Source of the DNA: a bacterium
Lineage (GTDB): Bacteria; Pseudomonadota; Alphaproteobacteria; SP197
Length of the DNA: 64,000 nt
NCBI GenBank assembly: GCA_028821455.1
Contig: JAPPGE010000067.1
Location: 111,242 to 175,241 of the forward strand
Direction: 5' to 3'
This document shows, piece by piece, positions 10,710 to 63,951 of this stretch. Position 1 is the stretch's first letter; each line of letters begins with the position of its first letter. The translations under genes and the position numbers were made by a program. The notes under the pieces are model-generated. The model saw only the letters and a program-made list of their open reading frames with translations, searched no databases and was not told where the DNA came from.

Positions 10710-10754
10710 CCCTGCCAGGCACAGGGGGCCCCGAAGCGAGGTGTTGCGGGGCGG

Positions 10755-47775: not shown

Positions 47776-50700
47776 ATGACCGTCCCAAGCGTCTTTGAAT
47801 TGTGCAAGCTGCGTGACGATGTTCTGGAAGGAACCGTGACGGAAGCTGACTTTGCCGCCGACCTTGCCCAGGTGATCGTCAACAAGGGTCCTGATGACTA
47901 CATCGACCCCGCCCGCTTCTTTGCCAACACCTATCCAACGCAAGGTTTGAGGGATCTACTCCGCAACGTCTGCAGCCGTCTCAGCGGAGCAGGTGATCAT
48001 GTGGCGTCGATCTTCCGTCTCGACACGTCCTACGGTGGCGGCAAGACACACGCGCTGATCGCCCTGTGCCACGTTGCGCGGAGCCGCGGCAAGGTTCCTG
48101 GCATCGAAGAATTCATCGATCCCGCGATCCTTCCCACAGCCGGAGTGCGAATCGCGGCATTTGATGGCGAGAACGCCGATCCAGCCAACGGGCGCCGCAT
48201 GGCTGATGGACACCTGGCCTTTACTCCATGGGGTGAGATCGCGTCGGCTCTTGCCGGCCGTGATGGTTACGAGCGTGTCCGCAAGAGCGACGAGACCGGC
48301 GAGGCACCGGGCGCGGAGACCTTGCGCGAATTGTTTGGCGGTGAACCAACTTTAATCCTGCTTGATGAGCTGTCAGTCTACCTGCGCAAGGTCCAGCGTA
48401 GAGACAACGCCCGGGACCAGCTGACCGCCTTTCTGACCTCGCTCTTCAAGGCGATTGGGAGCGCACCCAATGCGGTCGTTGTCTTCACCCTTGCCATCGG
48501 CAAGGACGGTTCCAGCGACGCCTACAGCCAGGAAAACCAGTTCATTGCAGACAAGATGCAGGAACTGACGAGCGTTGCAGGCCGCACGGCGACATTGCTC
48601 AATCCAACCGAAGAACATGAGACCATCCAGGTTCTCAAACGGCGCCTGTTCGAGTCCATCGACGAGTCGGCGGCGGTCACGGTTGTCGATGCCTATCGGG
48701 ATGTGTGGAACAGGCACAGGGAAGAACTACCGGAGTATGCCCAGCGACCGGAAATCGTCGACGAGTTCCGGTCCGGTTATCCCTTGCACCCGGATGTGCT
48801 CAAGACCCTGACCAGCAAGACCGCGACCCTCGACAACTTCCAGCGTGTGCGTGGCATGTTGCGGTTGCTGGCCCGCACGCTCTCCCATCTGTGGAACCAG
48901 CAGCCATCCCCTACGACCGCCATTCATGTGCATCACATTGACCCGGGTTACGAACCGGTTCGCCAAGAGATTCTGACGCGCCTTGGGCAAGAAAAATTCA
49001 GGTCGGCGATCTCCAATGACATCGCTTCACTTAAGATCAAGCGGGAGTCGCTAGCCGAGCAGATCGATGAGAAGGATCACCGCGGCCTGCAACCCTTTGC
49101 AAGGTACGTCGCCCGCACGATCTTCATTCATTCCCTTGCCTTCAATGACGCGTTGAAGGGCATCTCGCCGGAAGATCTGCGTTTTGCCGTTCTTGGTCCC
49201 GATACTGATATCAGTTTCATCGAGGGCGCTCGCAAGAGTTTCATCGCGGACTCCTCCTACCTCGATGATCGTCCTGGCATGCCTATGCGGTTTCTCATCG
49301 AAGCGAACCTTCAACAGGTCATCCGGCGGGCAGAAGGGCTGATTGACAGGGGAGAGGCTCGATCCGAACTGAACGACAGGATCCGGGAGATCTTCAACGG
49401 CAAGACATTCGACGTCGTTCCCTTTCCGGGAGGTCCTTTTGATGTCGCCGATGACCTGGCCGACGGCCGCCCGAAACTGGTTGTGCTCGGGTACGAGGCC
49501 GCCACCATCGGTGTTTCGGTCGATCATGTCCCCGATCTGGTCGAGCGGATCTTTGAACGAACAGGCTTGCAGGAATCCGCTTTGCGCAAGTATCGGAACA
49601 ATCTGGTGTTCGTGGTTGCAGACGATGCGCGCACGGACGACATGCGGCGGACGATGTTCCGGCGCATGGCCTTGCGTGCGATAAGGCGGCCTGAGCGTCT
49701 GAGCGAACTGGCGGACCATCAGCAGGACCGGGTGCGGGAACTGGAGACAAGGTCCGAACAGCAACTCGCAATCGCCATTCAGCATTGCTATCGGCACGTT
49801 TTCTATCCGACACGCAATCGCATCGAGGGAAGTCAAGTCGATCTGGGTCACACTGCCATCGACACCCCTTCCACCTCTGACCGCCCGGGCGTGGGGCAAA
49901 GGCAGGTTGAGCGCGTGTTGCGAGATCTCAACAAGCTCCGTCTGCCGGAGGACAATCCTGATTCGCCCACCTACGTGCGCGACCGGACTCCGCTCAAGAA
50001 CAAGGGACAGATCACCACCCTTTCGCTGCGGGAGGAGTTTCGCCGGGCACCGTCACTACCCATTCTCGTCGGCGATGACACCTTCGTCCGGGGTGTGAGA
50101 CTCGGTATCGAGGAAGGGCACTACGTCTATCGGCGCGGCGACTTGCTGTGCGGACCCGGTGATCCGATGGCGAGTATCGAGATCGACGAACAGTCCATGA
50201 TCCTGACGATGGACTTTGCAAAGAAGAACAACGTGTGGCCCCGCCCTTCATCGGAAAAGACTTCCGGCGAAGATGACCGTTCAGATGATGATAGTGACGG
50301 TCAGAATGACGAGGGTGACACAACCAGTGAAGGCGAGAGCGATAAAGATCATGGAACTGGGCCTGTGGAGTGCAAGGCCGAGGGCGTGCTTCGGGAAGCG
50401 TTGGTCAAAGTTTGGGAACAGGCCCGCGAGAAGAAGATAGAGAGCATCGCAACGCTCACGATCGCGATGTACGAAGCAGGAGATGCGTTCCGCCTCTTCC
50501 AGGCCGTTGCTGCGGTGACCGGCGCCACGAAGTCGGTCAGAATGGAGGGCGGCTACGACACACGTGAAGGTGGTTCATTCCAGTTGGAGTTCGATGGGCC
50601 GATCCCGGATGCGCAGCCAGTGCGCGAGTTTCTCGGTCCGCAGTTCCGGGACGCGAAGTCCAGCACCCTCAACGTCACCTTCCGGCTTGACTTCGCCGAT

Positions 50701-50805
50701 GGACTGAAGATGGAGAGTGATGCTGCGGAGAGGCTTACCGAACGTCTCAACAAGTTTGCGTCAGGCGCGGCCTATGTCTCGGCCACGGCCTCGGCGAAGA
50801 CCTGA
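47776..50805 (+). CDS. DUF499 P-loop ATPase, defence-associated
   Basis: A 1009-residue ATPase. Near the N-terminus, FRLDTSYGGGKTHALIALCHVA is the DUF499 Walker A (residues about 83-92, GGGKTH), and PTLILLDELSVYLRK (about 191-205) is Walker B. A middle part holds FRSGYPLHPDVLKTLTSKT, typical of DUF499. An acidic low-complexity linker, rich in D, E, S and G, lies near residue 830-870 before a compact C-terminal domain. The ATG at 47776 follows TAGGAG; a GTG ten codons upstream is less likely. It is the first gene of a tightly packed operon with a DUF1156 methyltransferase, a partner seen repeatedly with DUF499 in loci described as anti-phage. The biochemical role is unknown; NTP-driven DNA or complex remodelling is an inference. 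Confidence 0.85.
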   Translation: MTVPSVFELCKLRDDVLEGTVTEADFAADLAQVIVNKGPDDYIDPARFFANTYPTQGLRDLLRNVCSRLSGAGDHVASIFRLDTSYGGGKTHALIALCHVARSRGKVPGIEEFIDPAILPTAGVRIAAFDGENADPANGRRMADGHLAFTPWGEIASALAGRDGYERVRKSDETGEAPGAETLRELFGGEPTLILLDELSVYLRKVQRRDNARDQLTAFLTSLFKAIGSAPNAVVVFTLAIGKDGSSDAYSQENQFIADKMQELTSVAGRTATLLNPTEEHETIQVLKRRLFESIDESAAVTVVDAYRDVWNRHREELPEYAQRPEIVDEFRSGYPLHPDVLKTLTSKTATLDNFQRVRGMLRLLARTLSHLWNQQPSPTTAIHVHHIDPGYEPVRQEILTRLGQEKFRSAISNDIASLKIKRESLAEQIDEKDHRGLQPFARYVARTIFIHSLAFNDALKGISPEDLRFAVLGPDTDISFIEGARKSFIADSSYLDDRPGMPMRFLIEANLQQVIRRAEGLIDRGEARSELNDRIREIFNGKTFDVVPFPGGPFDVADDLADGRPKLVVLGYEAATIGVSVDHVPDLVERIFERTGLQESALRKYRNNLVFVVADDARTDDMRRTMFRRMALRAIRRPERLSELADHQQDRVRELETRSEQQLAIAIQHCYRHVFYPTRNRIEGSQVDLGHTAIDTPSTSDRPGVGQRQVERVLRDLNKLRLPEDNPDSPTYVRDRTPLKNKGQITTLSLREEFRRAPSLPILVGDDTFVRGVRLGIEEGHYVYRRGDLLCGPGDPMASIEIDEQSMILTMDFAKKNNVWPRPSSEKTSGEDDRSDDDSDGQNDEGDTTSEGESDKDHGTGPVECKAEGVLREALVKVWEQAREKKIESIATLTIAMYEAGDAFRLFQAVAAVTGATKSVRMEGGYDTREGGSFQLEFDGPIPDAQPVREFLGPQFRDAKSSTLNVTFRLDFADGLKMESDAAERLTERLNKFASGAAYVSATASAKT

Positions 50806-51285
50806 ATGATGGACTCTGGCTTCGTCTTTCATCGCGACACTCCGGACTCCGCGCCGCGTTACGAATTGCGTGTGCGCCGATACGGGGCCACAGACTCCGG
50901 ATACGAGGTCTGGCAGCTTCCCGCGGCAGCTTCACCCCATGTCACCAGTGCCGTGCGCGTTGCCGGACTCCGCGGACGTAACTTCGAACTTGTCGAGCAT
51001 CGGGTCCTCAAGCGGCTATCCAGGGCCGGAATCACACCTGTGCCGGCCCGCGATGCAGCCATCGACAGCCACTCATTGACAGAAGATCTCGCCTTGAACC
51101 TGGGGCTTCTATTCCGGACACTGGCGCCCATGCGCAGCCGCGACAACATGAGAGCCGTCGCCGAAGGCATCGACGCGATGGGGCGCGAAGAAGCGGCCTA
51201 CTGGCTGGGAATGGCGATGCATCGCAAGCACCCGCGAAGGGTATTGACGGCATTACGATGCTTGCTGACAGCGCCCCGGAGGTGA
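50806..51285 (+). CDS. Unassigned 159-residue protein in defence-like operon
   Basis: I do not recognise a family with confidence. The product begins MMDSGFVFHRDTPDSAPRYELRVRRYGATDSGYEVWQLP, a beta-rich start. It then has RVAGLRGRNFELVEHRVLKRLSRAGI and ends with a helical SRDNMRAVAEGIDAMGREEAAYWLGMAMHRKHPRRVLTALRCLL. The stop of the DUF499 gene directly abuts its ATG, so it is translationally tied to the ATPase. A small partner of this kind between DUF499 and the methyltransferase would fit an accessory subunit, but this is only inference. No catalytic motif is seen. Confidence 0.7.
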   Translation: MMDSGFVFHRDTPDSAPRYELRVRRYGATDSGYEVWQLPAAASPHVTSAVRVAGLRGRNFELVEHRVLKRLSRAGITPVPARDAAIDSHSLTEDLALNLGLLFRTLAPMRSRDNMRAVAEGIDAMGREEAAYWLGMAMHRKHPRRVLTALRCLLTAPRR

Positions 51286-51977
51286 TGATCGTCATGCGGA
51301 TCGAGCCGGACATTAGTGGTGTGGATATCGTACTTCGGGGAAACTTCAATCCGGCGATACTCACGCCGGCCTGGTTTGCGATGCACGGTCTGCTTCCCGG
51401 TGCTGACGAAACCGCTACGCTGGACTTGGCAACCCCTTCATTGGTCGCGTTTTCCACCGAATGGGTGAGCCTTCATTCAACAACCGATCAGTTCCAGGTC
51501 CATACTCAGCTGATGCCCTATGTGCGACTATCCGATCTTGTCCTTCGCATCTTTCGCGAACGTCTCCATCACACTCCTCTGTCGGCGTTGAGCATCAATC
51601 GCCACATTCATTTCCGTGTCGCAAGCCCCGAGACAAGACAACGGGTTGGCAGAATGCTGGCCCCACTTGCGCCTTGGACGGGGATTGCGGACACACTGAG
51701 ACTGACGGGAGCCGACAGCGGAATGCTGTCGCTTACCATGCGACAGTCAGAATTGACGGATCGGCCCAGCGGTGGACATATTGACACCCGAGTGGAACCT
51801 TCCGTCAGGGTCGGTGATGGCAGGCAGGGGGTCTACGTACATGTCAACGATCACTATGGTGCTGTCAATACGGCTGATGGAGCGGAGTACCTGCTGGACC
51901 TTCTTGAGACCAAGTTCGAGGAGTCACTTCAACGTGCCGACTCCATCGTCAATCACGTGATGTCTCTGTCAACCTGA
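51285..51977 (+). CDS. Unassigned 230-residue protein in defence-like operon
   Basis: Not recognised. The ATG at 51285 overlaps the previous stop (TGATG) and a GGAGG lies just upstream; the ATG at 51258 inside the previous gene and the one at 51294 are alternatives. The protein is mostly beta (VMRIEPDISGVDIVLRGNF, VAFSTEWVSLHSTTDQFQVHTQLMPYV), with ALSINRHIHFRV and a late beta pair RVGDGRQGVYVHVNDHYGA. It ends in a helix LLDLLETKFEESLQRADSIV. The layout is somewhat like TIGR04255-type proteins of sporadic distribution, a weak resemblance. Role unknown. Confidence 0.65.
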   Translation: MIVMRIEPDISGVDIVLRGNFNPAILTPAWFAMHGLLPGADETATLDLATPSLVAFSTEWVSLHSTTDQFQVHTQLMPYVRLSDLVLRIFRERLHHTPLSALSINRHIHFRVASPETRQRVGRMLAPLAPWTGIADTLRLTGADSGMLSLTMRQSELTDRPSGGHIDTRVEPSVRVGDGRQGVYVHVNDHYGAVNTADGAEYLLDLLETKFEESLQRADSIVNHVMSLST

Positions 51978-51986
51978 CAAAGTAGA

Positions 51987-52604
51987 GTGACCAATCCCAT
52001 GGCCCCATTCGATCAGTCGACTGCGGCGCAGTGGCATGACACGGCCGCTGACGAAAACGAATACGACGTCAACACCACCCTGCCGATTAGTCCCGGCGTT
52101 TCAGCAGCGAATCACGAAGTTGAACGAGCGCTTGCGAAGCGACGATTGGCAGACTCCCATCTGATGGACAACTCTGCCGCTCACGGCTCATCAGTTTCAC
52201 CTCTTCACGAGTGGAACACCGAGGCAGAGTCATTGATCGTCGATCTCCCTCCACGGGTCACGCGCCGGCGGCGTGGTGCGACATTGCATGCACTGCAGGA
52301 ATGGGAGGGGTATGTGGCGGAAATTCGTCACGATGACGTCGTGGCCCGCCTGACCGACATCACGGCCGGTCATCGTTACGAGAGCGTGGAAGCCATCATT
52401 CCTCGCTCCGAGATTGCCGAACGGGATGCCGAGCGCATGGTGGAAGGCAGTATTTTCCGCTGGGTCATCGGGATCGAGCGCTCCGGCAAGGAGACGGTCA
52501 GCCGCGTTTCGAGGATCGTCTTTCGTGATCTCCCCAGAATGACTCAGGAGGACTACCGCAGAGGCCGCGAATGGGCCCGATCGACTATGGCGAACTGGAC
52601 GTAG
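51987..52604 (+). CDS. Unassigned 205-residue protein upstream of MBL-fold gene
   Basis: The N-terminal 90 residues look disordered (STAAQWHDTAADENEYDVN). The C-terminal part is a compact beta domain: LHALQEWEGYVAEIRHDDVVARLTDITAG, then AIIPRSEIAERDAERMVEGSIFRWVIGIE and RVSRIVFRDLPRMTQEDYRRGREWA. Small proteins with this WEGxV, FxWxIG and FRxLP pattern occur often as uncharacterised partners in accessory loci. A GTG at 51987 or an ATG at 51999 may start it. The following MBL gene starts 34 bp before its stop, so the two are probably co-translated. It may be a partner of the MBL-fold protein; this is inference. Confidence 0.65.
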   Translation: MTNPMAPFDQSTAAQWHDTAADENEYDVNTTLPISPGVSAANHEVERALAKRRLADSHLMDNSAAHGSSVSPLHEWNTEAESLIVDLPPRVTRRRRGATLHALQEWEGYVAEIRHDDVVARLTDITAGHRYESVEAIIPRSEIAERDAERMVEGSIFRWVIGIERSGKETVSRVSRIVFRDLPRMTQEDYRRGREWARSTMANWT

Positions 52605-53686
52605 TGAACGGCACCGAGCGATCTCCCCGGGACGACGAGATCGAACTCACGTTGTTTGGTCCCGGCTATGGAGAAAGTATGGTCTTGCATCTCGGTAATG
52701 GCGTGTGGGTGGTGGTCGACTCTTGCGTGGATTCAACGGGTGCGCCGGCAGCCTTGCGATACCTTGAGCGGATAGGGGTCGATTCGGCTGAGTCGGTCAA
52801 TGTTGTTTTCGCGACGCACTGGCACGATGACCACATCAGGGGTCTGGTCGACATTCTCGCGGCCGCTCCAAACGCCGACTTCTGTTGCGCCAGCGCCTTA
52901 TGCACGTCGGAGTTTCTTGGAATGGTCGGTGCTCTCGAGACGGGGCACTTCTCGGTAGGCGGTTCCGGTATGCGAGAACTCCATGGCGTCTTTTCGCTTC
53001 TGGTTGACAGGGGCAAGGAACCGATCCACGCGATCGCCAACCGCATGGTGTACTGCAACCCAGACTGCGAGGTGTGGTCCCTCTCGCCGTCGGATTCGGT
53101 GTTCCAGACGTTTCTGAAGGCACTTCACGGTCTTATGCCGAAGGAGCGGGAAGCCAAGAACCGCGTCCGCGATCTTTCCCCAAACGAGGCGGCGGTTGTC
53201 CTGTGGGTGGAGGCAAAAGGAACATCGCTTCTCCTCGGATCCGACATGGAAAGGGGTGGATGGTCATTGATCCTGAGTGACACCACGCGCCCCGTCGGCA
53301 GGGCCTCGGTTTTCAAGGTGCCTCACCACGGCTCTGGGAATGCCCATGTACCTGAGGTCTGGGACTCCATGGTGGAGAAAGAAGCTGCCGCGATTCTTGC
53401 ACCTTGGAGAAGAGGCGGCCACGCCTTGCCCACGACGCAGGATGCCAAACGTATTCTGAACGAAACAACTCGCGCCTGGATCACCAGAAGCGGTTCTTCG
53501 AAGCAACTCTCCTTCAAACATCCAAATCGCACGGTCGAGAAGACTCTCAGGCAGGGCGTCGTGCGCCTGCAGCGTCTGCCTGACAGTTATCACAGAATCC
53601 GGTTGCGACGCCAATTTGATTCGAGCGACCCCTGGTCGGTCGAATTGTTTGGTGACGCCAGCCATCTTTCCGCCTACGCCGCCTGA
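52571..53686 (+). CDS. Metallo-beta-lactamase-fold protein (ComEC-like hydrolase)
   Basis: A 371-residue soluble MBL-fold protein. Metal-binding residues: THWHDDHIRGL (HxHxDH at about 83-88), LLLGSDMERGG (Asp at about 225) and VPHHGSGNAHVPEV (about 251-261), the last being typical of the hydrolase domain of ComEC-like proteins. Unlike ComEC it has no membrane part. Start ATG at 52571 lies inside the previous gene; a GTG at 52604 overlapping that gene's stop is an alternative. The methyltransferase gene follows 2 bp later. In a defence context a nuclease or nucleotide-phosphodiesterase role is plausible but unproved. Confidence 0.85.
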   Translation: MGPIDYGELDVVNGTERSPRDDEIELTLFGPGYGESMVLHLGNGVWVVVDSCVDSTGAPAALRYLERIGVDSAESVNVVFATHWHDDHIRGLVDILAAAPNADFCCASALCTSEFLGMVGALETGHFSVGGSGMRELHGVFSLLVDRGKEPIHAIANRMVYCNPDCEVWSLSPSDSVFQTFLKALHGLMPKEREAKNRVRDLSPNEAAVVLWVEAKGTSLLLGSDMERGGWSLILSDTTRPVGRASVFKVPHHGSGNAHVPEVWDSMVEKEAAAILAPWRRGGHALPTTQDAKRILNETTRAWITRSGSSKQLSFKHPNRTVEKTLRQGVVRLQRLPDSYHRIRLRRQFDSSDPWSVELFGDASHLSAYAA

Positions 53687-53688
53687 GC

Positions 53689-56619
53689 ATGTCCGACGCC
53701 CGCCTCATTGAGCGCTGGCTACCCATCGCTGCTCTGGGAGAGGAGAGCGTTCGCGAACGACGTTCCATGACCTCTCTGCCTCCAACGTACTACCTCCACG
53801 TGTGGTGGGCACGGCGGCCATTGGTTGCATCTCGCGCAGCTGTTCTTGCATCGCTTCTGCCATCGAATGCCGACCGTGAGAAGTTCATGCATGCTCTGGG
53901 AATTCATGGGGACCCGGTGGCGGCAAAACGGCGGATTGCAGCTGCGACAAGGCGAGGCGAGCGTTTGGGTTCTGCGGCGTACGGATATTCACGCGCCTTT
54001 GGCTACACTCCCGATCAGGATGATCGTCAATGGTTTGATGCCAACATCCCCAACGGGGCCAAGGTTCTTGATCCAACAGCGGGCGGGGGATCAGTACCAA
54101 TTGAGACGATCCGGCTTGGCTTCGAAGCCGTCGCCAATGATCTGAATCCGGTTGCCGCGTTGGTGGAGCGAGCAACATTTGAGTGGCCGGTGACACTCGG
54201 TGCAGATGTCAGGGACACCTTTGCGAAGCTCGGAAAAACACTGACCTGCAAGGTACGTGAGCAACTGGCTGGAGTGTTCCCTGAAGAGACAGGAGACGAC
54301 ATTCGACCAGATGGGTATCTATGGGCGCGCACGATCACCTGTCCCTATTGCGCTGGCCTGGTTCCGCTCTCTCCGAACTGGCGTCTGGCGCCCGGAGGAA
54401 CGGGTGTTCGATTGAAACCGGATCTTGGCGCTGGACCTGGCGACGACGACAGGATTTGCTCGTTCGAGATTGTCGAGAGTGTGCGGGAGCAATCGGCAGG
54501 AACGGTGGCTCGCGGGGACGGCGCGTGTCCGTATTCGGACTGCGGACGCATCATCGACGGCGACGAGATCAAGCGGCAGGCTCAGGCTGGCGACATGGGC
54601 GAGCAACTCTACGCTGTCGTCTACAAGAAACGCGTTCCCGGGAAGAAACTGAAATCCGGCAAGCGCGGCAAGGAGAAATGGGTACGCGGCTACCGGGCGC
54701 CACGTCCGGAGGACGACAACCGTGCGGACATCGCAGCGCGGCTCGCCGAGAAACTCCCCGAGTGGGAAGCGCTCGACATGGTGCCGAGCGAGAGGATTCC
54801 CGACGGCAACAAGACAACGGAACCCCTTCGGTACGGTATGCAGTACTGGCGCGATCTGTTCTCGCCACGCCAGCTTCTCTGCCACGGCACCAGCGTCGAG
54901 ATCTTCCGCGAGATGCTGGACACCGATCAGGCGAAGGGCGAACTGACGGATATTCGTCGCGCGGCATACGGGTACTTGGCGCTGTCGCTGGACAAGCTAC
55001 TGAACTACAATTCACGCATGTCGGTGTGGATGCCAACCCGAGAGGTCGTGGCAAACACCTTCAATCGGCATGACTACGCGTTCTGTTGGTCTCACGCCGA
55101 AATGGCTCCGCTCGTCACAGGTCTGGGCTACGATTGGGCCATCGAGCAGACAGCAAAGTGCATCGACGAGCTGGTTGCGTTGGTCTGTCCAGGAGCGACG
55201 GGCAATGCGGACGATTTCTTTGAGTCCTCCCGCACACCGCCGCCGATCACGATTTCCTGCAAGTCCGGCGACAATCTCGACCACGTCGAGGACGGCAGCA
55301 TCGATGCGGTGGTCATGGACCCACCCTACTACGACAATGTCATGTATGCCGAGCTGGCGGATTTCTTCTATGTCTGGCTCAAGCGTACCGCGGGCCATGT
55401 GTTCTCCGAACTCTTCCGCCGTAACCTGACGGACAAGGAGAACGAGGCCGTAGCCAACCCTGCGCGGTTCCAGGGACAGAAGGGCGCCAGGGCACTTGCT
55501 GGTCGCGACTATCAGGAACGGATGGCCTTGATCTTCGAAGAGTGCCGCCGGGTGCTCAAGCCGGATGGCATCATGACCCTCATGTTCACCCACAAGGCGA
55601 CGGGAGCCTGGGATGCGCTCACCACCGGCCTGATGGACGCGGGGTTTGTCATCACAGCCTCGTGGCCGGTCAACACGGAGGCTGAAGGAAGCCTCCACAT
55701 CAAGGACAAGGCTGCCGCCAAGAGCACCATATTCCTGGCCTGCCGGCCACGCACCTCCAGTCCGGAAGGTGAAGAGGTGTACTGGGAAGATGTGGAGCCC
55801 CATGTGACGCAGGCTGTCAGGAAGCAGATTGAATCGTACCAAGCGGCAGGGATCGCCGGCGTCGATCTCTATCTGGCGTCCTTCGGCCCTGCACTCGAGG
55901 AGTTTTCGCGTCACTGGCCCCTCAAGCGCGGCACTCCACGAGAAGTGCCGGAAGAACGCAGGCGAAGACGTCAGCGGGATTTGTTCGAGGACACGTGGGA
56001 TCCCTACGCGGCGACTCCGGAAGACGCTCTCGAGACCGCACGCCGTGAGGTGAAGCGTTGGCGTCTAGAACAGTTGACGCACAGTAAAGCCAGGACCGAC
56101 CTCGATCCCGCTACAGCCTTCTTTGTCCTCGCATGGGATGCGTTCAGGGCACCGACATTTGCCTACGACGAAGCCTTGCGCCTGGCCAGAGCCGTTGGCT
56201 CCGATCTTGAGAGGGACGTTGTCGGCAGGCTTGCCCACAAGAAGGCAAGCGACCTCACGTTGTGGGGCAGCGCTGAACGAGCAGCAAAGGGAACGCTCGG
56301 CCCTGCCGATGGTTCACGTGGCATGATCGATGCCATTCACCATGCCGTGAACTTGGCGCGCATGCGCACGCTTGATGCAGCCCGGGAGCTGCTCAGCCGG
56401 TCGGGAGTGGATCAGGATGCACAATTTGTCGCGTCGCTCGAAGCGGTGCTCGAAGTCCTGCCGGTCTCCATGACTTTCACCGGTATCGAGCTTGAAGGCG
56501 ATGTCGCTGCGTCAGGAGACGATTTTGAGATCCTCTACAACCTGAGCAGGTTTGCCTACAGTGACCGTGTCGACGAGCCGGAGCAGCTCAAGCTCTGGCA
56601 GGACGAAGATGTTTCCTGA
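53689..56619 (+). CDS. DUF1156 DNA adenine methyltransferase, defence-associated
   Basis: A 976-residue methyltransferase-like protein. DUF1156 start: LIERWLPIAALGEESVRERR, LPPTYYLHVWWARRPLVASRA. The SAM-binding motif I is VLDPTAGGGSVPIETIRLG (about 128-135) and the catalytic motif IV is VVMDPPYYDNVMYAELADFFYVWLKR (DPPY at about 544-547), as in N6-adenine methyltransferases. Between them a Cys-rich segment (TCPYC at about 217-221 and CPYSDC at about 280-285) looks like a zinc ribbon, possibly the target-recognition part. It starts 2 bp after the MBL gene and overlaps the helicase start by 1 bp (TGATG). In anti-phage systems such enzymes mark self DNA. The target sequence is unknown. Confidence 0.88.
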   Translation: MSDARLIERWLPIAALGEESVRERRSMTSLPPTYYLHVWWARRPLVASRAAVLASLLPSNADREKFMHALGIHGDPVAAKRRIAAATRRGERLGSAAYGYSRAFGYTPDQDDRQWFDANIPNGAKVLDPTAGGGSVPIETIRLGFEAVANDLNPVAALVERATFEWPVTLGADVRDTFAKLGKTLTCKVREQLAGVFPEETGDDIRPDGYLWARTITCPYCAGLVPLSPNWRLAPGGTGVRLKPDLGAGPGDDDRICSFEIVESVREQSAGTVARGDGACPYSDCGRIIDGDEIKRQAQAGDMGEQLYAVVYKKRVPGKKLKSGKRGKEKWVRGYRAPRPEDDNRADIAARLAEKLPEWEALDMVPSERIPDGNKTTEPLRYGMQYWRDLFSPRQLLCHGTSVEIFREMLDTDQAKGELTDIRRAAYGYLALSLDKLLNYNSRMSVWMPTREVVANTFNRHDYAFCWSHAEMAPLVTGLGYDWAIEQTAKCIDELVALVCPGATGNADDFFESSRTPPPITISCKSGDNLDHVEDGSIDAVVMDPPYYDNVMYAELADFFYVWLKRTAGHVFSELFRRNLTDKENEAVANPARFQGQKGARALAGRDYQERMALIFEECRRVLKPDGIMTLMFTHKATGAWDALTTGLMDAGFVITASWPVNTEAEGSLHIKDKAAAKSTIFLACRPRTSSPEGEEVYWEDVEPHVTQAVRKQIESYQAAGIAGVDLYLASFGPALEEFSRHWPLKRGTPREVPEERRRRRQRDLFEDTWDPYAATPEDALETARREVKRWRLEQLTHSKARTDLDPATAFFVLAWDAFRAPTFAYDEALRLARAVGSDLERDVVGRLAHKKASDLTLWGSAERAAKGTLGPADGSRGMIDAIHHAVNLARMRTLDAARELLSRSGVDQDAQFVASLEAVLEVLPVSMTFTGIELEGDVAASGDDFEILYNLSRFAYSDRVDEPEQLKLWQDEDVS

Positions 56620-59600
56620 TGCTGAAAGACCACAAGTGGAAGTTGAAGTATACACTCGATGACGGTGACCTTGTTCGCATCTTCTATGTCCCGGCACTGA
56701 AAACTGCCAAGCGTTACCATCGACTGACTGGATACTTCAGTGCTCGCGCGCTGGAACTGGCCGCTCGCGGAATCGAAGGGCTGGTGCGTAACGATGGGCA
56801 CATGAAACTCATCGTTGGATGCACCCTTGATCCGCCCGAGATCGACGCGATCACGAAAGGGGAGCAACTTCGCGATCTCGTCGAAAGACGATTGACGAGC
56901 CTTCCGCTGGACCCACCCGATGTGGACTCAACCGACGCACTGGAGTTGCTGGCCTGGATGGTCGGACGCGGCATCCTCGATGTGAAGGTCGCCGTGCCGT
57001 GCGATGGCAATGGCACACCGATACCAGACAACGGAATCTTCCACGAGAAGAGCGGCATCATCGAGGATGACCTTGGCGACCGGATCGCTTGGACCGGGAG
57101 CCTGAATGAAACCGGTGCGGGTTGGCAGACAAACTGGGAAACCATCAGTGTCTACACCAGCTGGGGACCGGAGCCAGGACGGGTCACAGAGGAAGAAGAG
57201 AGTTTTTCACGGGTCTGGTCTGGACACACCGGGCGGGTCAAGGTGCTCAATGTTCCGGAGGCAGTTCGTCGGGATCTGATGCGTTTCATGCCAAACCACG
57301 ACAGGCCAAAGCGTCTCGAGAACTTGCCGATGGCCCCGGGCATGGCCGTAAAGCCCGAGGTAGAGAGTGATGTAGAAGCCTCTCTCCCGATGAATTCATT
57401 GCGAGATCGGGTTTGGGCGTTCATCCGCGATGCTCCATCTCGCCCAGGTGGTGGAGAGAGGATTGGGGAAGCGACAGCACCGGTGGAGCCATGGCCTCAC
57501 CAGATCAGAGCCTTTGATCGTCTTTACCGGAATTGGCCACCGAAACTCCTGATCGCCGACGAAGTCGGACTCGGCAAGACCATCCAAGCCGGTTTGCTGC
57601 TGCGTCAGGCTTGGTTGGCTCGACGTGCCAAACGCATCTTGATTCTGGCGCCGAAGGCTGTGTTGCGCCAGTGGCAGATCGAATTGCGCGAGAAGTTCAA
57701 CCTCAACTGGCCGATCTACGACGGCCGCAAGCTGTCCTGGTATCCCTCTCCCGCCTTGAGAGGGAATCACGAACATGTCGTGGATCGTGACGAATGGCAC
57801 AGAGAACCGGTGGTGATCGCATCGAGCCAGTTGATGCGCCGCAAGGATCGGGCATCGGCGCTTCTCGAACAGGCAGAACCCTGGGATCTCGTGGTGCTTG
57901 ATGAAGCCCACCATGCCCGGCGGCGGGGTGCCGGCAGTACACGGGAAGGAGGGCCGAACACGTTGCTGAGGCTGATACAAGGCTTGAGGGAGAAAACCCA
58001 AGGCCTCCTCTTGCTGACGGCAACGCCGATGCAGGTTCACCCTATTGAGGTGTGGGACCTGTTGAATCTTCTCGGCCTCCCGTCCGCTTGGAGCGGGAAG
58101 AACTTCCTGCAGTTCTTTGACGATGCAGGCCACCCAAACCCTTCAAGAGACGCTTGGGAAAGGCTGGCGACGCTCTTCCAGTCGGTCGAGCGCACTTACG
58201 GTGAAGTGAGCAGAGAAGAAGGACAACGGATCGCAAAGGTGTCGCCCATGAAGACTGGGAAGATCTTGAGAGCCCTTCGCGCCGAGGCAAGTATTCCTCG
58301 TCGCCAGCTCGAGGCGGACGAGCGGCGTGCGGCAATCGCCATCCTGAAGATGAACACCCCAATACGCAGGTTGGTTTCGCGGCATACCCGTGAACTACTG
58401 CGACGGTACCACGAGGCGGGGATGCTCTCGACACAAATCGCGAGTCGGGTAGTCGAAGACCGCTTTCTCGACATGACTGCGGAGGAACGCCTCCTCTACG
58501 ATGCCGTCGAGGATTACATTTCCAACACCTACGAGCAGGCCGGAGACCACGAGCGTTCCGCGGTGGGATTTGTCATGACTGTCTATCGCCGTCGTCTTGC
58601 GAGCAGCTTCTTTGCCCTTCGCAAGACGTTGAAGAAGCGCCGGAACTCAATGCTTGACGATGAGGTTTCGAGACTAGCGTTTGAGGAGGAAGACTTGCCC
58701 GATGACGATCTCTCGGATGAAACCATCGATCTTGACGCCGTCGAGGACTTCCAGAGTGCATCACTTGCAAAGGAACAAAGGGATGCGATCGATGTCCTCC
58801 TGAACGACATCGCGCGCCTGCCTCCCGACAGCAAGCTCAACAGCCTCTTGGGCGTTCTCGATGACCTGCGCGACAACCACTTCATGCAGGTCATGGTCTT
58901 CACTCAGTTTTCCGACACCATGGACTTTCTTCGCGAGGAACTCACCTGGAGAACGAACCTCAGGCTGTTGTGCTTTTCCGGGCGTGGGGGAGAAGTTCCA
59001 GGCAGCGATGGCACATGGCGGCAGATCACCAGGGACGACGCCAAGCGGCGCTTTCGCGATCGCGCTGCGGACATCCTGATTTGCACCGATGCGGCAGCCG
59101 AAGGTCTCAACTTTCAGTTCTGCGGTGCCCTTGTGAACTATGACATGCCATGGAACCCGATGCGTGTGGAACAGCGCATTGGACGCATTGATCGTCTGGG
59201 ACAGGAACACCCCACAATCCGCATCGTCAATCTACACTATGAGAATACCGTCGAAACCGATGTCTATCGCGCTGTTCGGAAGCGTATCAATCTCTTCGAA
59301 ACGGTTGTGGGACCGTTGCAGCCGATCCTGTCGAAACTCCCGGGGAGGATTTCGGAAACCGTGTTGCGCGGAAGGTCTCGCGGCGCTCGTGAGTACCCAG
59401 ACATCGTCGATGTTCTGATACATGATGCCGACGAACATGGTGGGGCCCTTTTCGACATCGACGAAGTAACCGATACCGATCTCGAGATGCCAGCGCAACC
59501 GCAGCCTACAGTTACCATGGAGGATCTCGACAGGATCATCAGAACCGAAGAGCTCATGCCTCCCAGCATCGAAACCCGACCCCTGGAGAGGCGCGTGTAC

Positions 59601-59789
59601 GCCATACGGATGCCAGGTATGCACAACGAAGTTCGAATCACCAGCAACACCCTCTACTACGAAGAACATTCCGAGAGTGTTGAGCTTTGGTCCCCAGGTT
59701 GCCCTATGTTTGTGCCGCCAGAGTACACTGCGACCAGAGAGGATGACAATTCACCTACAACCTTGGCAGACCTTCTGGACGGAAAATAG
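56619..59789 (+). CDS. SNF2-family helicase with N-terminal PLD-like domain
   Basis: A 1056-residue protein with two parts. Residues 1-180 are phospholipase-D-like: FYVPALKTAKRYHRLTGYFSARALELAARGIEGL, then FHEKSGIIEDDLGDRIAWTGSLNETGAGW (H-x-K at about 142-144, with the following G-S-x-N). Residues about 290-1056 are a superfamily 2 SNF2-type ATPase: IADEVGLGKTIQAGLLLRQ (Walker A, about 314-321), LVVLDEAHHARR (DEAH at about 428-431), LLTATPMQ, and the C-terminal VEQRIGRIDRLGQ. The start overlaps the methyltransferase stop. Only one H-x-K is visible, so the PLD part might need to dimerise or be non-catalytic. Such PLD-SNF2 proteins are common in defence islands. Confidence 0.88.
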   Translation: MLKDHKWKLKYTLDDGDLVRIFYVPALKTAKRYHRLTGYFSARALELAARGIEGLVRNDGHMKLIVGCTLDPPEIDAITKGEQLRDLVERRLTSLPLDPPDVDSTDALELLAWMVGRGILDVKVAVPCDGNGTPIPDNGIFHEKSGIIEDDLGDRIAWTGSLNETGAGWQTNWETISVYTSWGPEPGRVTEEEESFSRVWSGHTGRVKVLNVPEAVRRDLMRFMPNHDRPKRLENLPMAPGMAVKPEVESDVEASLPMNSLRDRVWAFIRDAPSRPGGGERIGEATAPVEPWPHQIRAFDRLYRNWPPKLLIADEVGLGKTIQAGLLLRQAWLARRAKRILILAPKAVLRQWQIELREKFNLNWPIYDGRKLSWYPSPALRGNHEHVVDRDEWHREPVVIASSQLMRRKDRASALLEQAEPWDLVVLDEAHHARRRGAGSTREGGPNTLLRLIQGLREKTQGLLLLTATPMQVHPIEVWDLLNLLGLPSAWSGKNFLQFFDDAGHPNPSRDAWERLATLFQSVERTYGEVSREEGQRIAKVSPMKTGKILRALRAEASIPRRQLEADERRAAIAILKMNTPIRRLVSRHTRELLRRYHEAGMLSTQIASRVVEDRFLDMTAEERLLYDAVEDYISNTYEQAGDHERSAVGFVMTVYRRRLASSFFALRKTLKKRRNSMLDDEVSRLAFEEEDLPDDDLSDETIDLDAVEDFQSASLAKEQRDAIDVLLNDIARLPPDSKLNSLLGVLDDLRDNHFMQVMVFTQFSDTMDFLREELTWRTNLRLLCFSGRGGEVPGSDGTWRQITRDDAKRRFRDRAADILICTDAAAEGLNFQFCGALVNYDMPWNPMRVEQRIGRIDRLGQEHPTIRIVNLHYENTVETDVYRAVRKRINLFETVVGPLQPILSKLPGRISETVLRGRSRGAREYPDIVDVLIHDADEHGGALFDIDEVTDTDLEMPAQPQPTVTMEDLDRIIRTEELMPPSIETRPLERRVYAIRMPGMHNEVRITSNTLYYEEHSESVELWSPGCPMFVPPEYTATREDDNSPTTLADLLDGK

Positions 59790-59833
59790 ATTTGCCGCAT
59801 TGGGCGGCACTCCTCACAAAGTACACTAGGTTC

Positions 59834-59859
59834 GGGCCCATACAGTTCCTGTAGGGCCC
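59834..59859 (+). promoter_or_regulatory. Strong hairpin between helicase and sacsin-like gene
   Basis: GGGCCCATACAG (59834-59845), loop TTC, CTGTAGGGCCC (59849-59859) form an 11-bp stem with one bulged A. It lies in the 109-bp gap after the helicase stop and 40 bp before the next ATG. No T-run follows, so a simple Rho-independent terminator is not supported. It could partly separate the last gene from the operon. Confidence 0.55.
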
Positions 59860-59898
59860 ACAGCCAGTTGCAATACCCACTGACCCAGCGAGTCCCAT

Positions 59899-62800
59899 AT
59901 GGCAACCCAGTACACTCAATACGTCAGTAATCTAGCAGATCGAAAGATTCGAGGGTTTCAGGGCACCATCGATGAGCATGGTGAATATCTTGACAGTATC
60001 TATCAGAGCAATCGGAGTTTGTCCGCAAGCATCGCCTCAGACTATCGTGATAGATTCCTACTGGAACTGATTCAGAATGCCTACGATGCGCACTTAATTG
60101 GAACACAAGGTGGCCAAATCGAACTCACTCTGGACAAGTCCGCGGGTAGGGCCGGAACGCTACTTGTAGCAAATGGTGGTAGGCCGTTTGCTGAAGCAAA
60201 CGTAAAGAGCCTATGCGACATAGGATTGTCCCAAAAGCCGTTAGGCGAATCGATCGGAAACAAAGGTCTCGGGTTTCGGAGCGTTGTTCAAATCACCGAC
60301 GCACCAGTAATCTACTCTCAATGCCTTTCCAATCCTGAAAAGAGCCACTTCTCCGGCTTTTGCTTCAGGTTTGCTGGTACTAGTGATTACCAAGAAATGA
60401 TCAGCGATGCTGCGCACCTTAGGCTCGCATTACGCGACCTTCCCATATTCCATGTTCCCGTATGGGTCGAGCGCCAAAGTGAAGTGATTCGTGGTTATGC
60501 CGCAGCCGGCTTTTCCTCAGTGATCGAATTGCCGTTGCGGGATTCAGATGCCCTAGACGCAGCGGAACGAGAAATCAATCATCTTGCCGAGCAGAATGTA
60601 CCGATACTGCTCTTCCTAGATCGTATATCTGCACTGACCGTTCGAATAGTGGGTAGCACGGGGCTCGTTGAGAGGGAGTTCGTATTCATCCGGAATGAGG
60701 AGAGCATTACTACGACAGGCATCAGGATGGCTCTCGTCAACTTAGGGGAGGTCGGCCGATTTCTTGTAGCTCGTGAGATCGTGCCAGAAGCAACGATGAA
60801 GAAGGCAATTAAGGTCGGTATCAAGAGGAAAGAGCTGAACGAGTATTGGGTGGATTGGGCCGGTGAAGGTGACGTTGCTGTTGCGGTGCGACTCGGCTCC
60901 AACTTAACGTCTTCCCGCCTGTATGCCTTTCTTCCGTTAGGCGAACAGGCGGTCGCACCCTTTTTGGGCTATCTCCATGGGAGCTTTGCGCCATCTTCCA
61001 ATCGCCGGAACCTGAATGCAGGAATCACGTTGAACTCCACATTGCTGATGACGTCGGCTAAGCTGGCGGCCGAGACTATTCATTACATCATAACTGACCC
61101 GCTAAACACGCTGACTGCTTGGTTAGCTGAGAAAGAGCGAGCAACGGCGGTTGTTGACCTGCTAAGCTGGACGAATGTCAGTAGTGTTGAGGGTGATGAC
61201 AAGCTCATCGCGGAACTGACCCAAGACTTGGCTAAGCACTTTGCGGTGGACAGGATCGAGCAGGCACCCGTGGTGCCTTGCCTAATGTCAGGCACTGATG
61301 ACCCCATCATTGCATGGCAACCACCTGCGCAAGTGCGCCGCTGGCCTGACGGTGGATCGGTATTTTCAGCCGACGAGTGTGTGCGGTTCGCACCAGCGGG
61401 GGGAGTATGGCCCATTTGGGGGGCCTTAGGCGAGAGAATAGATACACTCGAGGAATTTCTCCAAGCGAATACAGATTGTTATGTGGGGCCGCCTCGCCCG
61501 GATGAACGGGCATGGTTGGTAAGCATGATAGCCGGAACAATAGTTAAGCGCCGTCGAGGTGCAAAGGCCCAATGGTTGAGGTTTTTCCACGAGATTCCGG
61601 ATTTCATGCATCACAACGGAGATCACCTAGGCGGGCGAGAAGTACTCCTGGGTGATGATGGTGAACTTCACCGTGCGATGTCACCAGATGCTGTTGAGAC
61701 ATCCGCTGGCCGGTCAGTTCGTCGTCGACGGCGCACAGTAGAGATGGCCGTGTTTTCGCCGCCAGATCCGCGTAGAGCGTCGAATGATGATGAAAATGAA
61801 GTACGCCCACCCAAGAAATTGTCAAAGCGATTTACATTTCTGAGCTCCACTTTGCCTTGGCACGGAGAACTGAGTTCTGCCCGTTCATACTTCGAGAAAC
61901 ATAAGCTCGTAGGGGAGTTCGAGCGTGAGACTATCTTGGCACATTTGTCCCGGACCCTTCATGGTGAGAACAACCGAGAAGTGCTGCGGGGAGGTCTGCG
62001 GTGGGCATTTCAGCTCTGGCGTCAACCAAGAGCGCAAGGCAGAACATTCAAACTGCAACCCCAACACCGCTTTCGGGTTCCTGTGGTAGGTGGGAAATAT
62101 GTAGAGGCGCACGAGGTAGTCTTCTCCGCCGACTGGCCCGCTGAGACCGAAGGGCGACTGGTGCAGGATTTCTTGGACGCAGCACCAACCGGGCTGCCCG
62201 ACTTAGACAATTTATCAAGCAGCAGATTGGCTGCACCTGATCATCCTGCCTTCCGCGGGAGGTGGATAGATGACTGGGTTGTCTTTCTTGCTGAACTGGG
62301 CGTTAACAGGGGCTTGGTGCCAGAGTCGAGGAGCAGCAACGCCAATAGCTTTGTAGCTTCAAAAGTCTCCGACTTCACGTTTCTAAAGCACTATGGCATT
62401 CCCTCGAAGTTTGGTGATCTCTGGCGAGAAGATATAGTCTCGCAAAATCCTGACCTACTCCAACTTCCCACGTATACTGACTACGCAATTGAAGGCGAGG
62501 TCTCTTGGTTGCCAGGGCAAGCTGATATTGACGACTTTTCCGGAACCTGTAAGGCGCGTTATGCACGACTCATTATGGGGTGGCTGTTGCAACGCCCAAA
62601 AGTGCAATGGGATATTGATATCCATCATCTGTACTTCCATCAAGCTGACCGTAGAAAGTGGCCTTCGCCGATCAGGTCTTTCCTGCGTGCAGCGCGCTGG
62701 CTTCCGGTTGTCGAACCTTCAAGGAGCTCACTTGAAGCTGTCGGAGTGAAACCCAGTGATGTTTGGATAAGCAATACAGGAGGCGAACGCTTTGAGTCAT

Positions 62801-63951
62801 ACTTGCGCCGACCACCTCGCGAATTGCGGCGCTACATTGAACGATCACCGGACGAGCTTGTGCATAGACTTGCTGAACATTGTGAACTTAGGATCTTGGA
62901 TGATCCAGCGATCTTGCACAAACAATTGGAATTTCTAGCGGAGACATACACGAGAGGCGAGTTCGACAGTCACTTCGAGCCCCACTTGCTTAACAGATAC
63001 TATAGAACATGGCGACTGCTAGTTCGAAACATGGGGCATGGAGATCAAGAAGCCAATTCAAATGATGCACCGGTGACGATTCTTGCTCGAAGGGGGCAAG
63101 CAATCGAAAGAGTGGCATTGTTGGAGCAGGATGAAGAAATTGAAGAGTGTGTTTACGTCTGTGACACAAACAGGGAAAGCGATGCGAGTCTTCTTGAGGT
63201 AAGTGGACGCCTTTTCTTTTCGTTGAAGGACGTAGAGCCCGATAAGTTGGGAATGTTGTTCGAGAGTTGTTACGGCCAACGCATCAGGCGTGTTTCTCAG
63301 GTTTCATATGAGTTACTTGTGGACGGAAACGACATAAGGAACGCAAAGTCAAGGGCGGCCGTTGATATCTGTCCGCAACTACGTTCGATGTTGGCGATTG
63401 GAATGGAGGCTCTAGGCGGCACGGAGGCGCAACGCCTGCCAACGGATCGATCGACCGTACTCACGAGGCTCGACCGACTGACGATGACAAAAGCGGCCAG
63501 GGTTGGCTTCACTATCGACGGGATGGATGTGTCGACTGACCAAGACACTGCTTGCGCCTTTCACTTCCGGTTCGACAATGGGCAGTCAGTCGTTGCCGTT
63601 CAGTCCTCTCGAGAGTGGGATTGGGAACTGGTTGATGTATGCATCCCAGCGGTCTGTGAAGCAGTTGGACATAGAGCTCTAACGCCGCATCTCAGATTGC
63701 TCGTCGCACACCTTCGCAATGGTCAAGCACAGCCGGAATCGCTGTCACGTCCAGTCGAAGACATACAAAGTTTTTCAAACATCCTACAGCTTTCGCCTTC
63801 AGCATCGTTTTCGGCTCACGCCACACTCAGTGCAGGGTTGGAGCGCCAGGCACCATGGATACGAGCCGTTCTGCATCTCTTGGTGGGGCCTTCGGCAGTG
63901 GAGGCATTCGACAGGGAAAGCGATGAAGTGCTGATGGACGCCAGTTGTTGA
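59899..63951 (+). CDS. Sacsin/HSP90-like ATPase-domain protein, defence-associated
   Basis: A 1350-residue protein with an N-terminal GHKL (HSP90-type) ATPase. Visible motifs: LLELIQNAYDAH (N-box with E-x-x-x-N, about 55-64), LLVANGGRPFAEANVKSLC (G1-like region, about 88-106) and SIGNKGLGFRSVVQITDAP (G2-like, about 118-136). This matches the sacsin N-terminal ATP-binding-like domain found in large bacterial defence-island proteins. The remaining 1100 or so residues are not recognised. Base composition is visibly AT-richer than the upstream operon, and the gap has a hairpin, so it may be a separate acquisition. The start ATG at 59899 lacks a clear ribosome-binding site. Role unknown; an ATP-driven sensor or effector is a guess. 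Confidence 0.82.
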   Translation: MATQYTQYVSNLADRKIRGFQGTIDEHGEYLDSIYQSNRSLSASIASDYRDRFLLELIQNAYDAHLIGTQGGQIELTLDKSAGRAGTLLVANGGRPFAEANVKSLCDIGLSQKPLGESIGNKGLGFRSVVQITDAPVIYSQCLSNPEKSHFSGFCFRFAGTSDYQEMISDAAHLRLALRDLPIFHVPVWVERQSEVIRGYAAAGFSSVIELPLRDSDALDAAEREINHLAEQNVPILLFLDRISALTVRIVGSTGLVEREFVFIRNEESITTTGIRMALVNLGEVGRFLVAREIVPEATMKKAIKVGIKRKELNEYWVDWAGEGDVAVAVRLGSNLTSSRLYAFLPLGEQAVAPFLGYLHGSFAPSSNRRNLNAGITLNSTLLMTSAKLAAETIHYIITDPLNTLTAWLAEKERATAVVDLLSWTNVSSVEGDDKLIAELTQDLAKHFAVDRIEQAPVVPCLMSGTDDPIIAWQPPAQVRRWPDGGSVFSADECVRFAPAGGVWPIWGALGERIDTLEEFLQANTDCYVGPPRPDERAWLVSMIAGTIVKRRRGAKAQWLRFFHEIPDFMHHNGDHLGGREVLLGDDGELHRAMSPDAVETSAGRSVRRRRRTVEMAVFSPPDPRRASNDDENEVRPPKKLSKRFTFLSSTLPWHGELSSARSYFEKHKLVGEFERETILAHLSRTLHGENNREVLRGGLRWAFQLWRQPRAQGRTFKLQPQHRFRVPVVGGKYVEAHEVVFSADWPAETEGRLVQDFLDAAPTGLPDLDNLSSSRLAAPDHPAFRGRWIDDWVVFLAELGVNRGLVPESRSSNANSFVASKVSDFTFLKHYGIPSKFGDLWREDIVSQNPDLLQLPTYTDYAIEGEVSWLPGQADIDDFSGTCKARYARLIMGWLLQRPKVQWDIDIHHLYFHQADRRKWPSPIRSFLRAARWLPVVEPSRSSLEAVGVKPSDVWISNTGGERFESYLRRPPRELRRYIERSPDELVHRLAEHCELRILDDPAILHKQLEFLAETYTRGEFDSHFEPHLLNRYYRTWRLLVRNMGHGDQEANSNDAPVTILARRGQAIERVALLEQDEEIEECVYVCDTNRESDASLLEVSGRLFFSLKDVEPDKLGMLFESCYGQRIRRVSQVSYELLVDGNDIRNAKSRAAVDICPQLRSMLAIGMEALGGTEAQRLPTDRSTVLTRLDRLTMTKAARVGFTIDGMDVSTDQDTACAFHFRFDNGQSVVAVQSSREWDWELVDVCIPAVCEAVGHRALTPHLRLLVAHLRNGQAQPESLSRPVEDIQSFSNILQLSPSASFSAHATLSAGLERQAPWIRAVLHLLVGPSAVEAFDRESDEVLMDASC

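What the first reader, a model, noticed from the sequence alone, without database searches (positions are those of the whole stretch)
47776..63951. Candidate poorly described anti-phage system: DUF499 ATPase, small unknowns, MBL-fold, DUF1156 methyltransferase, PLD-SNF2 helicase, sacsin-like ATPase
Seven plus-strand genes are packed with gaps of 0 to 9 bp or overlaps, followed by a large GHKL ATPase gene. The mix of a DNA methyltransferase, a PLD-helicase, two ATPases and an MBL-fold hydrolase is typical of restriction-like defence. From family knowledge, DUF499 and DUF1156 recur together in loci annotated as anti-phage-associated, and PLD, helicase and methyltransferase are also DISARM parts. 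Here there is no DUF1998 protein (so not DISARM), no PglZ/BrxC set (so not BREX) and no DUF3780. The MBL-fold gene and the three small unknowns are extra. I infer a defence function; it is not shown by the sequence.
Basis: partly seen in the sequence, partly recalled or inferred. Interest (0 to 1): 0.85.

Follow-up and report, generated by a model that had tools for sequence, protein, structure and literature searches.

The report
Phage-defence operon with swappable module slot
This stretch of a bacterial genome holds a four-gene core that likely fights viruses by marking its own DNA and destroying unmarked DNA; the core frames a slot that carries different defence-gene families in other genomes and here carries an unstudied three-gene set with a predicted DNA-cutting enzyme.

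Summary
DUF499, DUF1156 methyltransferase and HKD-SNF2 helicase are the core of the DUF499-centred BREX-related (BR, or "Hma") kind (PMC12839542). Three things are new relative to the text I read. (1) Gene 2 is DUF7680, a fourth core gene in the place that DUF3780 holds in Type-2 BR loci; its model has the published DUF3780 layout (4 strands, 5 helices), and DUF7680-linked DUF499 proteins form their own clade. (2) The gap between DUF7680 and the methyltransferase is a slot: 300 bp or more in 41 of 50 loci, against 2 of 72 for the DUF499-DUF7680 gap. Slots hold Septu, Nsn, Schlafen-type, Avs3-like and RT genes. Broken ends of the two flanking genes lie between modules, suggesting capture by recombination. 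(3) The window's slot carries g3-g4-MBL, a cassette found in 9 of 78 loci and, apart from the core, in 4 other genomes and 1 viral contig; I infer a backup DNase module. The sacsin-like gene 8 matches PADLOC TmtA and is probably a separate system. Function is inferred throughout; nothing was tested at the bench.

The parts
47776..50805 (+). g1, DUF499 AAA+ ATPase (core)
   Evidence: Pfam DUF499 147 bits, PADLOC HmaC 333 bits, NCBIfam DUF499_antiphage 215 bits (below its cut-off of 1200)
50806..51285 (+). g2, DUF7680 protein (core; likely counterpart of DUF3780)
   Evidence: Pfam DUF7680 147.5 bits; model of 4 strands and 5 helices, pLDDT 87; position and profile comparison with DUF3780
51286..53688 (+). 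variable slot between DUF7680 and methyltransferase, filled here by the g3-g4-MBL cassette
   Evidence: slot 300 bp or more in 41 of 50 loci
51294..51977 (+). g3, cassette protein of unknown family (likely start 51294; longest ORF from 51258)
   Evidence: 162 relatives, no Pfam hit, model pLDDT 90 without a clear fold match
51987..52604 (+). g4, cassette protein of unknown family, conserved C-terminal domain (EWEGYV...FRDLPRMT)
   Evidence: 574 relatives, no Pfam hit
52571..53686 (+). g5, MBL-fold hydrolase, ComEC-like, predicted nuclease
   Evidence: Lactamase_B 30.8 bits; HWHDDH and PHHGS kept in 9 of 9 copies; ComEC domains in the PDB, residues 204-258 only
53689..56619 (+). g6, DUF1156 DNA methyltransferase (core)
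   Evidence: DUF1156 56 bits, HmaB 232 bits; DPPY at residue 544
56619..59789 (+). g7, HKD(PLD)-SNF2 helicase (core)
   Evidence: SNF2, Helicase_C, PLDc_2; HxK and GSxN residues conserved
59899..63951 (+). g8, sacsin-type ATPase, PADLOC TmtA; probably a neighbouring separate system
   Evidence: TmtA 1082 bits; no match in 12 relatives with room beyond g7

Best explanation
The locus is a DUF7680-type, BREX-related operon, likely restriction-modification-like (DUF499 ATPase, DUF7680, DUF1156 methyltransferase, HKD-SNF2 helicase), whose core frames a variable slot between DUF7680 and the methyltransferase, and here that slot is filled by a g3-g4-MBL cassette that likely works as a nested backup immune module. 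Predicted core mechanism: the methyltransferase marks host DNA; the DUF499 ATPase, with DUF7680 as a likely reader or adaptor, licenses the HKD-helicase on unmarked invading DNA, which is then unwound and cut. Predicted cassette mechanism: g3 and g4 sense infection, or loss of the core, and release the MBL enzyme, a ComEC-like DNase. Slot contents appear to change by recombination at the ends of the two flanking core genes. Shown by calls: families, gene order, the slot, its contents, the remnants, and the cassette apart from the core. Inferred: every biochemical step, defence itself, the DUF7680-DUF3780 kinship and the recombination mechanism.
For: Core families; same order in other genomes; DUF499 and DUF7680 together in 6 of 6 close plasmid records. 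Slot: 41 of 50 loci with 300 bp or more, against 2 of 72 (g1-g2) and 15 of 39 (g6-g7). Slot contents: Septu, Nsn, Avs3a, AbiLi/PDC-M38A, RT, PDC-S01, Schlafen-type, STAND-TPR; an assigned family in 30 of 41 closed slots. Broken flanking-gene ends beside modules in 8 of 78 loci. Cassette in 9 of 78 loci and apart from the core in 4 genomes and 1 viral contig. DUF7680 in the DUF3780 place, 4 strands and 5 helices as published for DUF3780, whole-length profile alignment, own DUF499 clade. MBL site intact in 9 of 9 copies. Related MBL enzymes are immune DNases (PMC12799240, abstract and passages).
Against: No experiment. HHalign's own probability for DUF7680-DUF3780 is 2 to 6%, and one unrelated long profile (g7) scores as high, though over 39 columns only. 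11 of 41 closed slots have no assigned family, and 15 of 39 methyltransferase-helicase gaps are wide too. The window itself has no remnant in its slot. The MBL enzyme could have another substrate, and no activating protease was found beside it. One free-standing cassette lies among housekeeping genes. The 77 loci were picked by DUF7680, so its constant presence in them is no evidence.
Confidence: 0.6

Rival explanations
1. All seven genes g1-g7 form one integrated system in which g3, g4 and the MBL enzyme are obligatory subunits of this subtype rather than a swapped-in module.
For: Tight packing and overlaps over g1-g7; the cassette recurs in this place in 9 of 78 loci.
Against: 69 of 78 DUF7680 loci lack g3 and g5, many with other genes in the slot or none; the cassette occurs without core genes in the fetched stretch of 4 other genomes.
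Confidence: 0.15
2. The g3-g4-MBL cassette is not an immune module but a passenger with a metabolic or regulatory hydrolase that rides on the mobile operon.
For: MBL folds serve many reactions; one free-standing copy lies among housekeeping genes (priA, alr, gidA; L108).
Against: It sits where other loci carry defence modules; other free copies lie beside a BglII-type restriction gene on a viral contig (L104), a VapE-type gene (L109) and a Zot-type gene (L110); nearest solved relatives by sequence are ComEC domains.
Confidence: 0.2
3. The slot is only the usual accretion of defence genes in defence islands; the remnants are chance debris of rearranged operons, not traces of exchange at that junction.
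For: Defence genes cluster generally; the g6-g7 gap also takes insertions (15 of 39); remnants were seen in only 8 of 78 loci.
Against: The g1-g2 junction is nearly free of insertions (2 of 72); remnants are DUF7680 3' ends and methyltransferase 5' ends, the ends that face the slot, with none from DUF499, the DUF7680 N-terminus or the methyltransferase C-terminus in 64 slots.
Confidence: 0.25

Closest known systems
DUF499-centred BREX-Related (BR) systems, Type-2 (PMC12839542)
   Same: DUF499 ATPase, DUF1156 methyltransferase, helicase with N-terminal HKD nuclease, one small alpha+beta protein between ATPase and methyltransferase genes
   Different: DUF7680 instead of DUF3780; separate DUF499 clade; wide variable slot; MBL cassette, which the main text does not mention
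BR Type-1 / Hma (PMC12839542, PMC8565338)
   Same: ATPase, methyltransferase, helicase; Hma was noted to occur often with Septu type I
   Different: Type-1 helicases carry an N-terminal TUDOR and a C-terminal nuclease; the helicase here carries an N-terminal HKD domain, and DUF7680 is a fourth core gene
Auxiliary and backup effectors of BREX/BR loci (PMC12839542, section 35, part 1)
   Same: HNH-OLD ATPase pairs, Schlafen, PIN and others embedded within or beside core loci
   Different: Here one junction takes most insertions, broken flanking-gene ends accompany modules, and an MBL cassette is among them
MBL nuclease-protease pairs of Hachiman, AVAST, Lamassu and DRT (PMC12799240)
   Same: ComEC-like MBL hydrolase captured as an extra gene by an existing immune operon
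   Different: No trypsin- or caspase-like partner found by profile; partners are g3 and g4
PADLOC TmtA
   Same: gene 8 matches the profile over most of its length (1082 bits)
   Different: neighbour, not judged part of the operon; what the label stands for was not found

Membership tests
BREX-Related (DUF499-centred) systems in general | DUF499 ATPase, DUF1156 N6-type methyltransferase and SNF2 helicase in one operon | tested here: met
BREX-Related (DUF499-centred) systems in general | Phage restriction and self-methylation | not testable with these tools
   needs bench work and long-read methylation data
BR Type-2 | N-terminal HKD nuclease in the helicase | tested here: met
   PLDc_2; H142, K144, G160, N163 in 44 of 44 aligned helicases
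BR Type-2 | Standalone DUF3780 gene in the locus | tested here: not met
   no DUF3780 profile hit in the operon or genome; DUF7680 holds the place, kinship suggestive only
BR Type-2 | DUF499 within the Type-2 clade | tested here: not met
   37-sequence tree: DUF7680-linked and 8 DUF3780-linked DUF499 separate
BR Type-1 | No further core gene; helicase with TUDOR N-terminus and C-terminal PD-(D/E)XK nuclease | tested here: not met
   N-terminal HKD and DUF7680 present; the C-terminal region was not examined for a nuclease fold
BR Type-3 | PglZ gene in the core locus | tested here: not met
   no PglZ hit among the eight genes
BR Type-3 | iSTAND component | tested here: inconclusive
   g3 model shows no clear match; g4 not folded
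Hma (PADLOC) | HmaA, HmaB, HmaC profile matches | tested here: met
   HmaC 333, HmaB 232, HmaA 191 bits; for the helicase BrxH, PLD_Helicase, PbeA and DrmD profiles score higher
DISARM | DUF1998 protein (DrmB; recalled as defining) | tested here: not met
   no such hit
BREX (canonical) | BrxC and PglZ | tested here: not met
   no such hit listed
MBL nuclease-protease pair | MBL hydrolase with HxHxDH | tested here: met
MBL nuclease-protease pair | Trypsin- or caspase-like protease domain in the operon | tested here: not met
   no protease family among g1-g8
PADLOC TmtA (gene 8) | Profile match | tested here: met
   1082 bits

The most novel reading that the evidence does not exclude
The DUF7680-type operon is a plug-in platform for immunity: the ends of its DUF7680 and methyltransferase genes act as homology arms through which complete defence systems are captured, stacked and exchanged inside one operon, and g3-g4-MBL is a new free-standing three-gene immune system that plugs into it.
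Probability: 0.35. Interest if true: 0.82.

Novelty: new variant of a known kind. Interest (0 to 1): 0.6.

Why it matters
If true, it explains how multi-layered defence operons are assembled: a stable restriction-like core with a slot where backup systems are swapped. The slot is then a discovery tool, because unknown genes found in it (g3-g4-MBL, and the 11 of 41 closed slots without an assigned family) are prime candidates for new immune modules. It also gives DUF7680, with 2915 relatives found and no paper in the held library that names it, a testable role as the counterpart of DUF3780.

Tried and rejected

Limits of counts: PADLOC scans of slot genes covered 30 proteins of 329 plus-strand slot ORFs of 70 aa or more, many of the rest probably spurious; minus-strand ORFs in slots were not examined. 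Other members were assigned by clusters above 70 bits, and the family table was entered by hand from these. Gap counts leave out, for the slot, 25 loci with the methyltransferase missing, upstream or on the other strand, and 3 (L080, L082, L083) whose DUF7680 scored under 150 bits. Of the 2 wide DUF499-DUF7680 gaps, L062 is a DUF499 gene split in two frames and L009 a tandem copy. In the remnant search, hits in split or contig-cut methyltransferases (L009 at 16049, L053, L060, L067, L078) and the helicase hit in L028 were not counted; L038 and L082 were seen only; short DUF7680-like pieces in L013 (far upstream of the operon), L068 and L080 were left out.
Full report
What is there. The window is G000:C16:111242-175241 of a 104-contig assembly, and the contig ends 49 bp after the last gene. 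Eight plus-strand genes start at 47776. Profile searches give DUF499, DUF7680, two proteins without family, an MBL-fold hydrolase, a DUF1156 methyltransferase, a PLD/HKD-SNF2 helicase and a sacsin-type ATPase. GC content falls from 0.66-0.69 upstream to 0.53-0.60 across the locus, and the gene divergent from it is a MobF relaxase-helicase (42072-47450, minus), so the setting looks like a mobile element.

Core. DUF499, DUF1156 and SNF2 helicase are the three shared parts of the DUF499-centred BREX-related systems (PMC12839542; abstract, passages, sections 30 and 33 and part 1 of section 35 read) and of PADLOC's Hma (PMC8565338; passages read). The helicase has the N-terminal HKD domain that PMC12839542 gives as a mark of Type-2: H142, K144, G160 and N163 (HxK, GSxN) are kept in 44 of 44 aligned helicases, 6 of them from DUF3780 loci and 4 divergent. 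The methyltransferase has DPPY, which fits an N6 or N4 enzyme; PMC8565338 calls HmaB an m5C enzyme, PMC12839542 an N6 enzyme.

DUF7680. Gene 2 has 2915 relatives; the 120 listed are all 73% identical or more. I took 77 DUF7680 loci from the species-level genome collection, in Proteobacteria, Acidobacteria, Gemmatimonadota, Verrucomicrobia, Spirochaetia and others; they were found by two short conserved peptides, so they are a sample. With the window, 74 of 78 carry a DUF499 match. As the loci were chosen by DUF7680, an independent check is the plasmid search: 6 of 6 records whose DUF499 is over 50% identical to the window's also hold DUF7680. Divergent DUF7680 proteins lie between DUF499 and DUF1156 on plasmids of Haloarcula, Rhodococcus, Leptolyngbya and Annamia, with further small genes in between in the last two. 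DUF7680 is not shared by kin: 2 of 96 related genomes have a match, the window's own and one in pieces.

DUF7680 and DUF3780. DUF3780 holds the same place in seven Type-2 plasmid loci that I read. The DUF7680 model (pLDDT 87) has four strands and five helices; PMC12839542 describes DUF3780 as a four-stranded antiparallel sheet with five helices. A profile comparison aligns 137-140 columns in order, with EEAAYW facing EERWWL. Column-shuffled DUF3780 decoys reach the score in 1 of 150 with the first DUF7680 set, 0 of 150 with the set that has more divergent rows, and 0 of 200 with 14 DUF3780 rows; none aligns 100 columns. HHalign's own probability stays at 2 to 6%, and one unrelated long profile, g7, scores 24.5, though over 39 columns only. 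I read this as plausible but unproven kinship. In a DUF499 tree of 37 sequences the DUF7680-linked ones group together (support 0.966; 23 close, 4 divergent), apart from 8 DUF3780-linked ones (1.0) and from a Thermus locus and the second DUF499 locus of this genome (of 64 close DUF7680-linked sequences besides the window's, 22 were used).

Slot. Measured on profile boundaries, the DUF499-DUF7680 gap is 300 bp or more in 2 of 72 loci, the DUF7680-methyltransferase gap in 41 of 50, and the methyltransferase-helicase gap in 15 of 39. When narrow, the slot is 10-27 bp in 8 loci and 236 bp in one. An Aminobacter plasmid and three viral contigs carry the empty form, the former among conjugation genes. 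Slot genes, scanned as representatives, include Septu PtuA (404 bits) and PtuB (185), NsnA/B/C (386, 328, 346), Avs3a (642), PDC-M38A/AbiLi (200/156), an RT of the UG6 kind (77), a PDC-S01 ATPase (158), a Schlafen-type protein, STAND-TPR ATPases, an AAA-PD-(D/E)XK protein and a PIN_8 protein. With cluster members added, 30 of 41 closed slots hold an assigned family, 27 of them one other than the MBL cassette; 11 hold none. The Schlafen, STAND-TPR, AAA-PD-(D/E)XK and PIN_8 assignments rest on Pfam domains only, and in L007 the Nsn match is a 97-aa fragment.

Remnants. In 8 of 78 loci, broken ends of the flanking core genes lie beside modules: DUF7680 3' ends in L009, L016, L024, L030; methyltransferase 5' ends in L009, L011, L020, L030, L038, L082. 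In L030 the order is PtuA, PtuB, methyltransferase start, DUF7680 end, NsnA, NsnB, NsnC, full methyltransferase. In L016 and L024 the DUF7680 end lies directly before g3. In L009 a broken DUF7680 precedes g3-g4-MBL, which lie upstream of a second, intact DUF7680. In L011 a methyltransferase start follows the MBL gene and a STAND module comes next. Fragments of DUF499, of the DUF7680 N-terminus and of the methyltransferase C-terminus gave no hit in 64 slots. The simplest reading is that modules arrive with the ends of the neighbouring core genes, by recombination between operons; this is inferred. The window's own slot shows no remnant.

The g3-g4-MBL cassette. The three genes occur together in this order in 9 of 78 loci; g4 alone is found in two more. 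A search of 398 genomes of the phylum with the g3 profile found 4 besides the window's own; all 4 have the MBL gene close by and 3 a recognisable g4, with no hit to the four core genes in the fetched stretch (5 to 20 kb). One viral contig also carries it, beside a BglII-type restriction gene. Others lie near a VapE-type gene and a Zot-type gene, one among housekeeping genes; the neighbours of the fourth were not scanned. The MBL protein keeps HxHxDH and PHHGS in 9 of 9 copies; its only solved relatives by sequence are ComEC proteins, over residues 204-258 (E 0.001-0.003). PMC12799240 (abstract and passages read) reports that ComEC-like MBL enzymes of Hachiman and AVAST are DNases held back until a protease cuts them; here no protease family was found, so g3 and g4 are my candidates for the gate, without direct evidence.

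Gene 8. It matches PADLOC TmtA (1082 bits). No match was found in the 12 relatives with at least 1.5 kb beyond the helicase. A 109-bp gap with a hairpin (fold z -2.8) separates it from gene 7; the terminator scan does not list that hairpin on the plus strand. I treat it as a neighbour.

Verdict. An anti-phage function for the core rests on family membership (PMC12839542 states that a study confirmed phage defence by the Hma helicase; I did not read that study). The novelty lies in the DUF7680 clade, the slot and the cassette, none of which I found in the paper text read; DUF7680 has no hit in the held library. Associations of BR or Hma loci with Septu and other effectors were known before.

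Noticed in passing
L004 (G000:C35:8500-28000), 2242-11494: The same genome has a second DUF499 locus, ordered helicase, methyltransferase, DUF499, whose helicase match lacks the HKD part; it falls outside the DUF7680 clade.
   Followed up: partly
window 42072-47450, minus: A MobF/TraI-like relaxase-helicase is divergent from the defence operon; a tRNA-Ser lies just beyond it at 41929-42004.
   Followed up: no
L090 8669-9438 and L122 813-933: In two Deinococcus Type-2 loci a toxin-antitoxin gene or pair follows DUF3780 directly, the same place as the slot.
   Followed up: no
L009 3938-4027: A broken methyltransferase 5' end also lies upstream of DUF499, possibly left by a former tandem operon.
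   Followed up: no
L023, L027, L037: In three loci the methyltransferase and helicase lie on the other strand upstream of DUF499, so the operon can be split and inverted.
   Followed up: no
L006 (G079:C26): The only other DUF7680 match among 96 related genomes is in pieces in two frames, apparently a decayed gene.
   Followed up: no
window 52571-53686: The MBL protein matches a phage protein family of unknown function (phrog_28593, 117 bits), so phages carry relatives.
   Followed up: no
L008 7935-8303; L030 10591-11277: g4 occurs without g3 and MBL right after DUF7680, and in databases it is commoner than g3 (574 against 162 relatives), so it may serve other modules as an adaptor.
   Followed up: partly
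gap between methyltransferase and helicase, e.g. L019, L025, L046, L051: A second, less used insertion place of about 0.9-1 kb lies between methyltransferase and helicase (15 of 39 loci).
   Followed up: no
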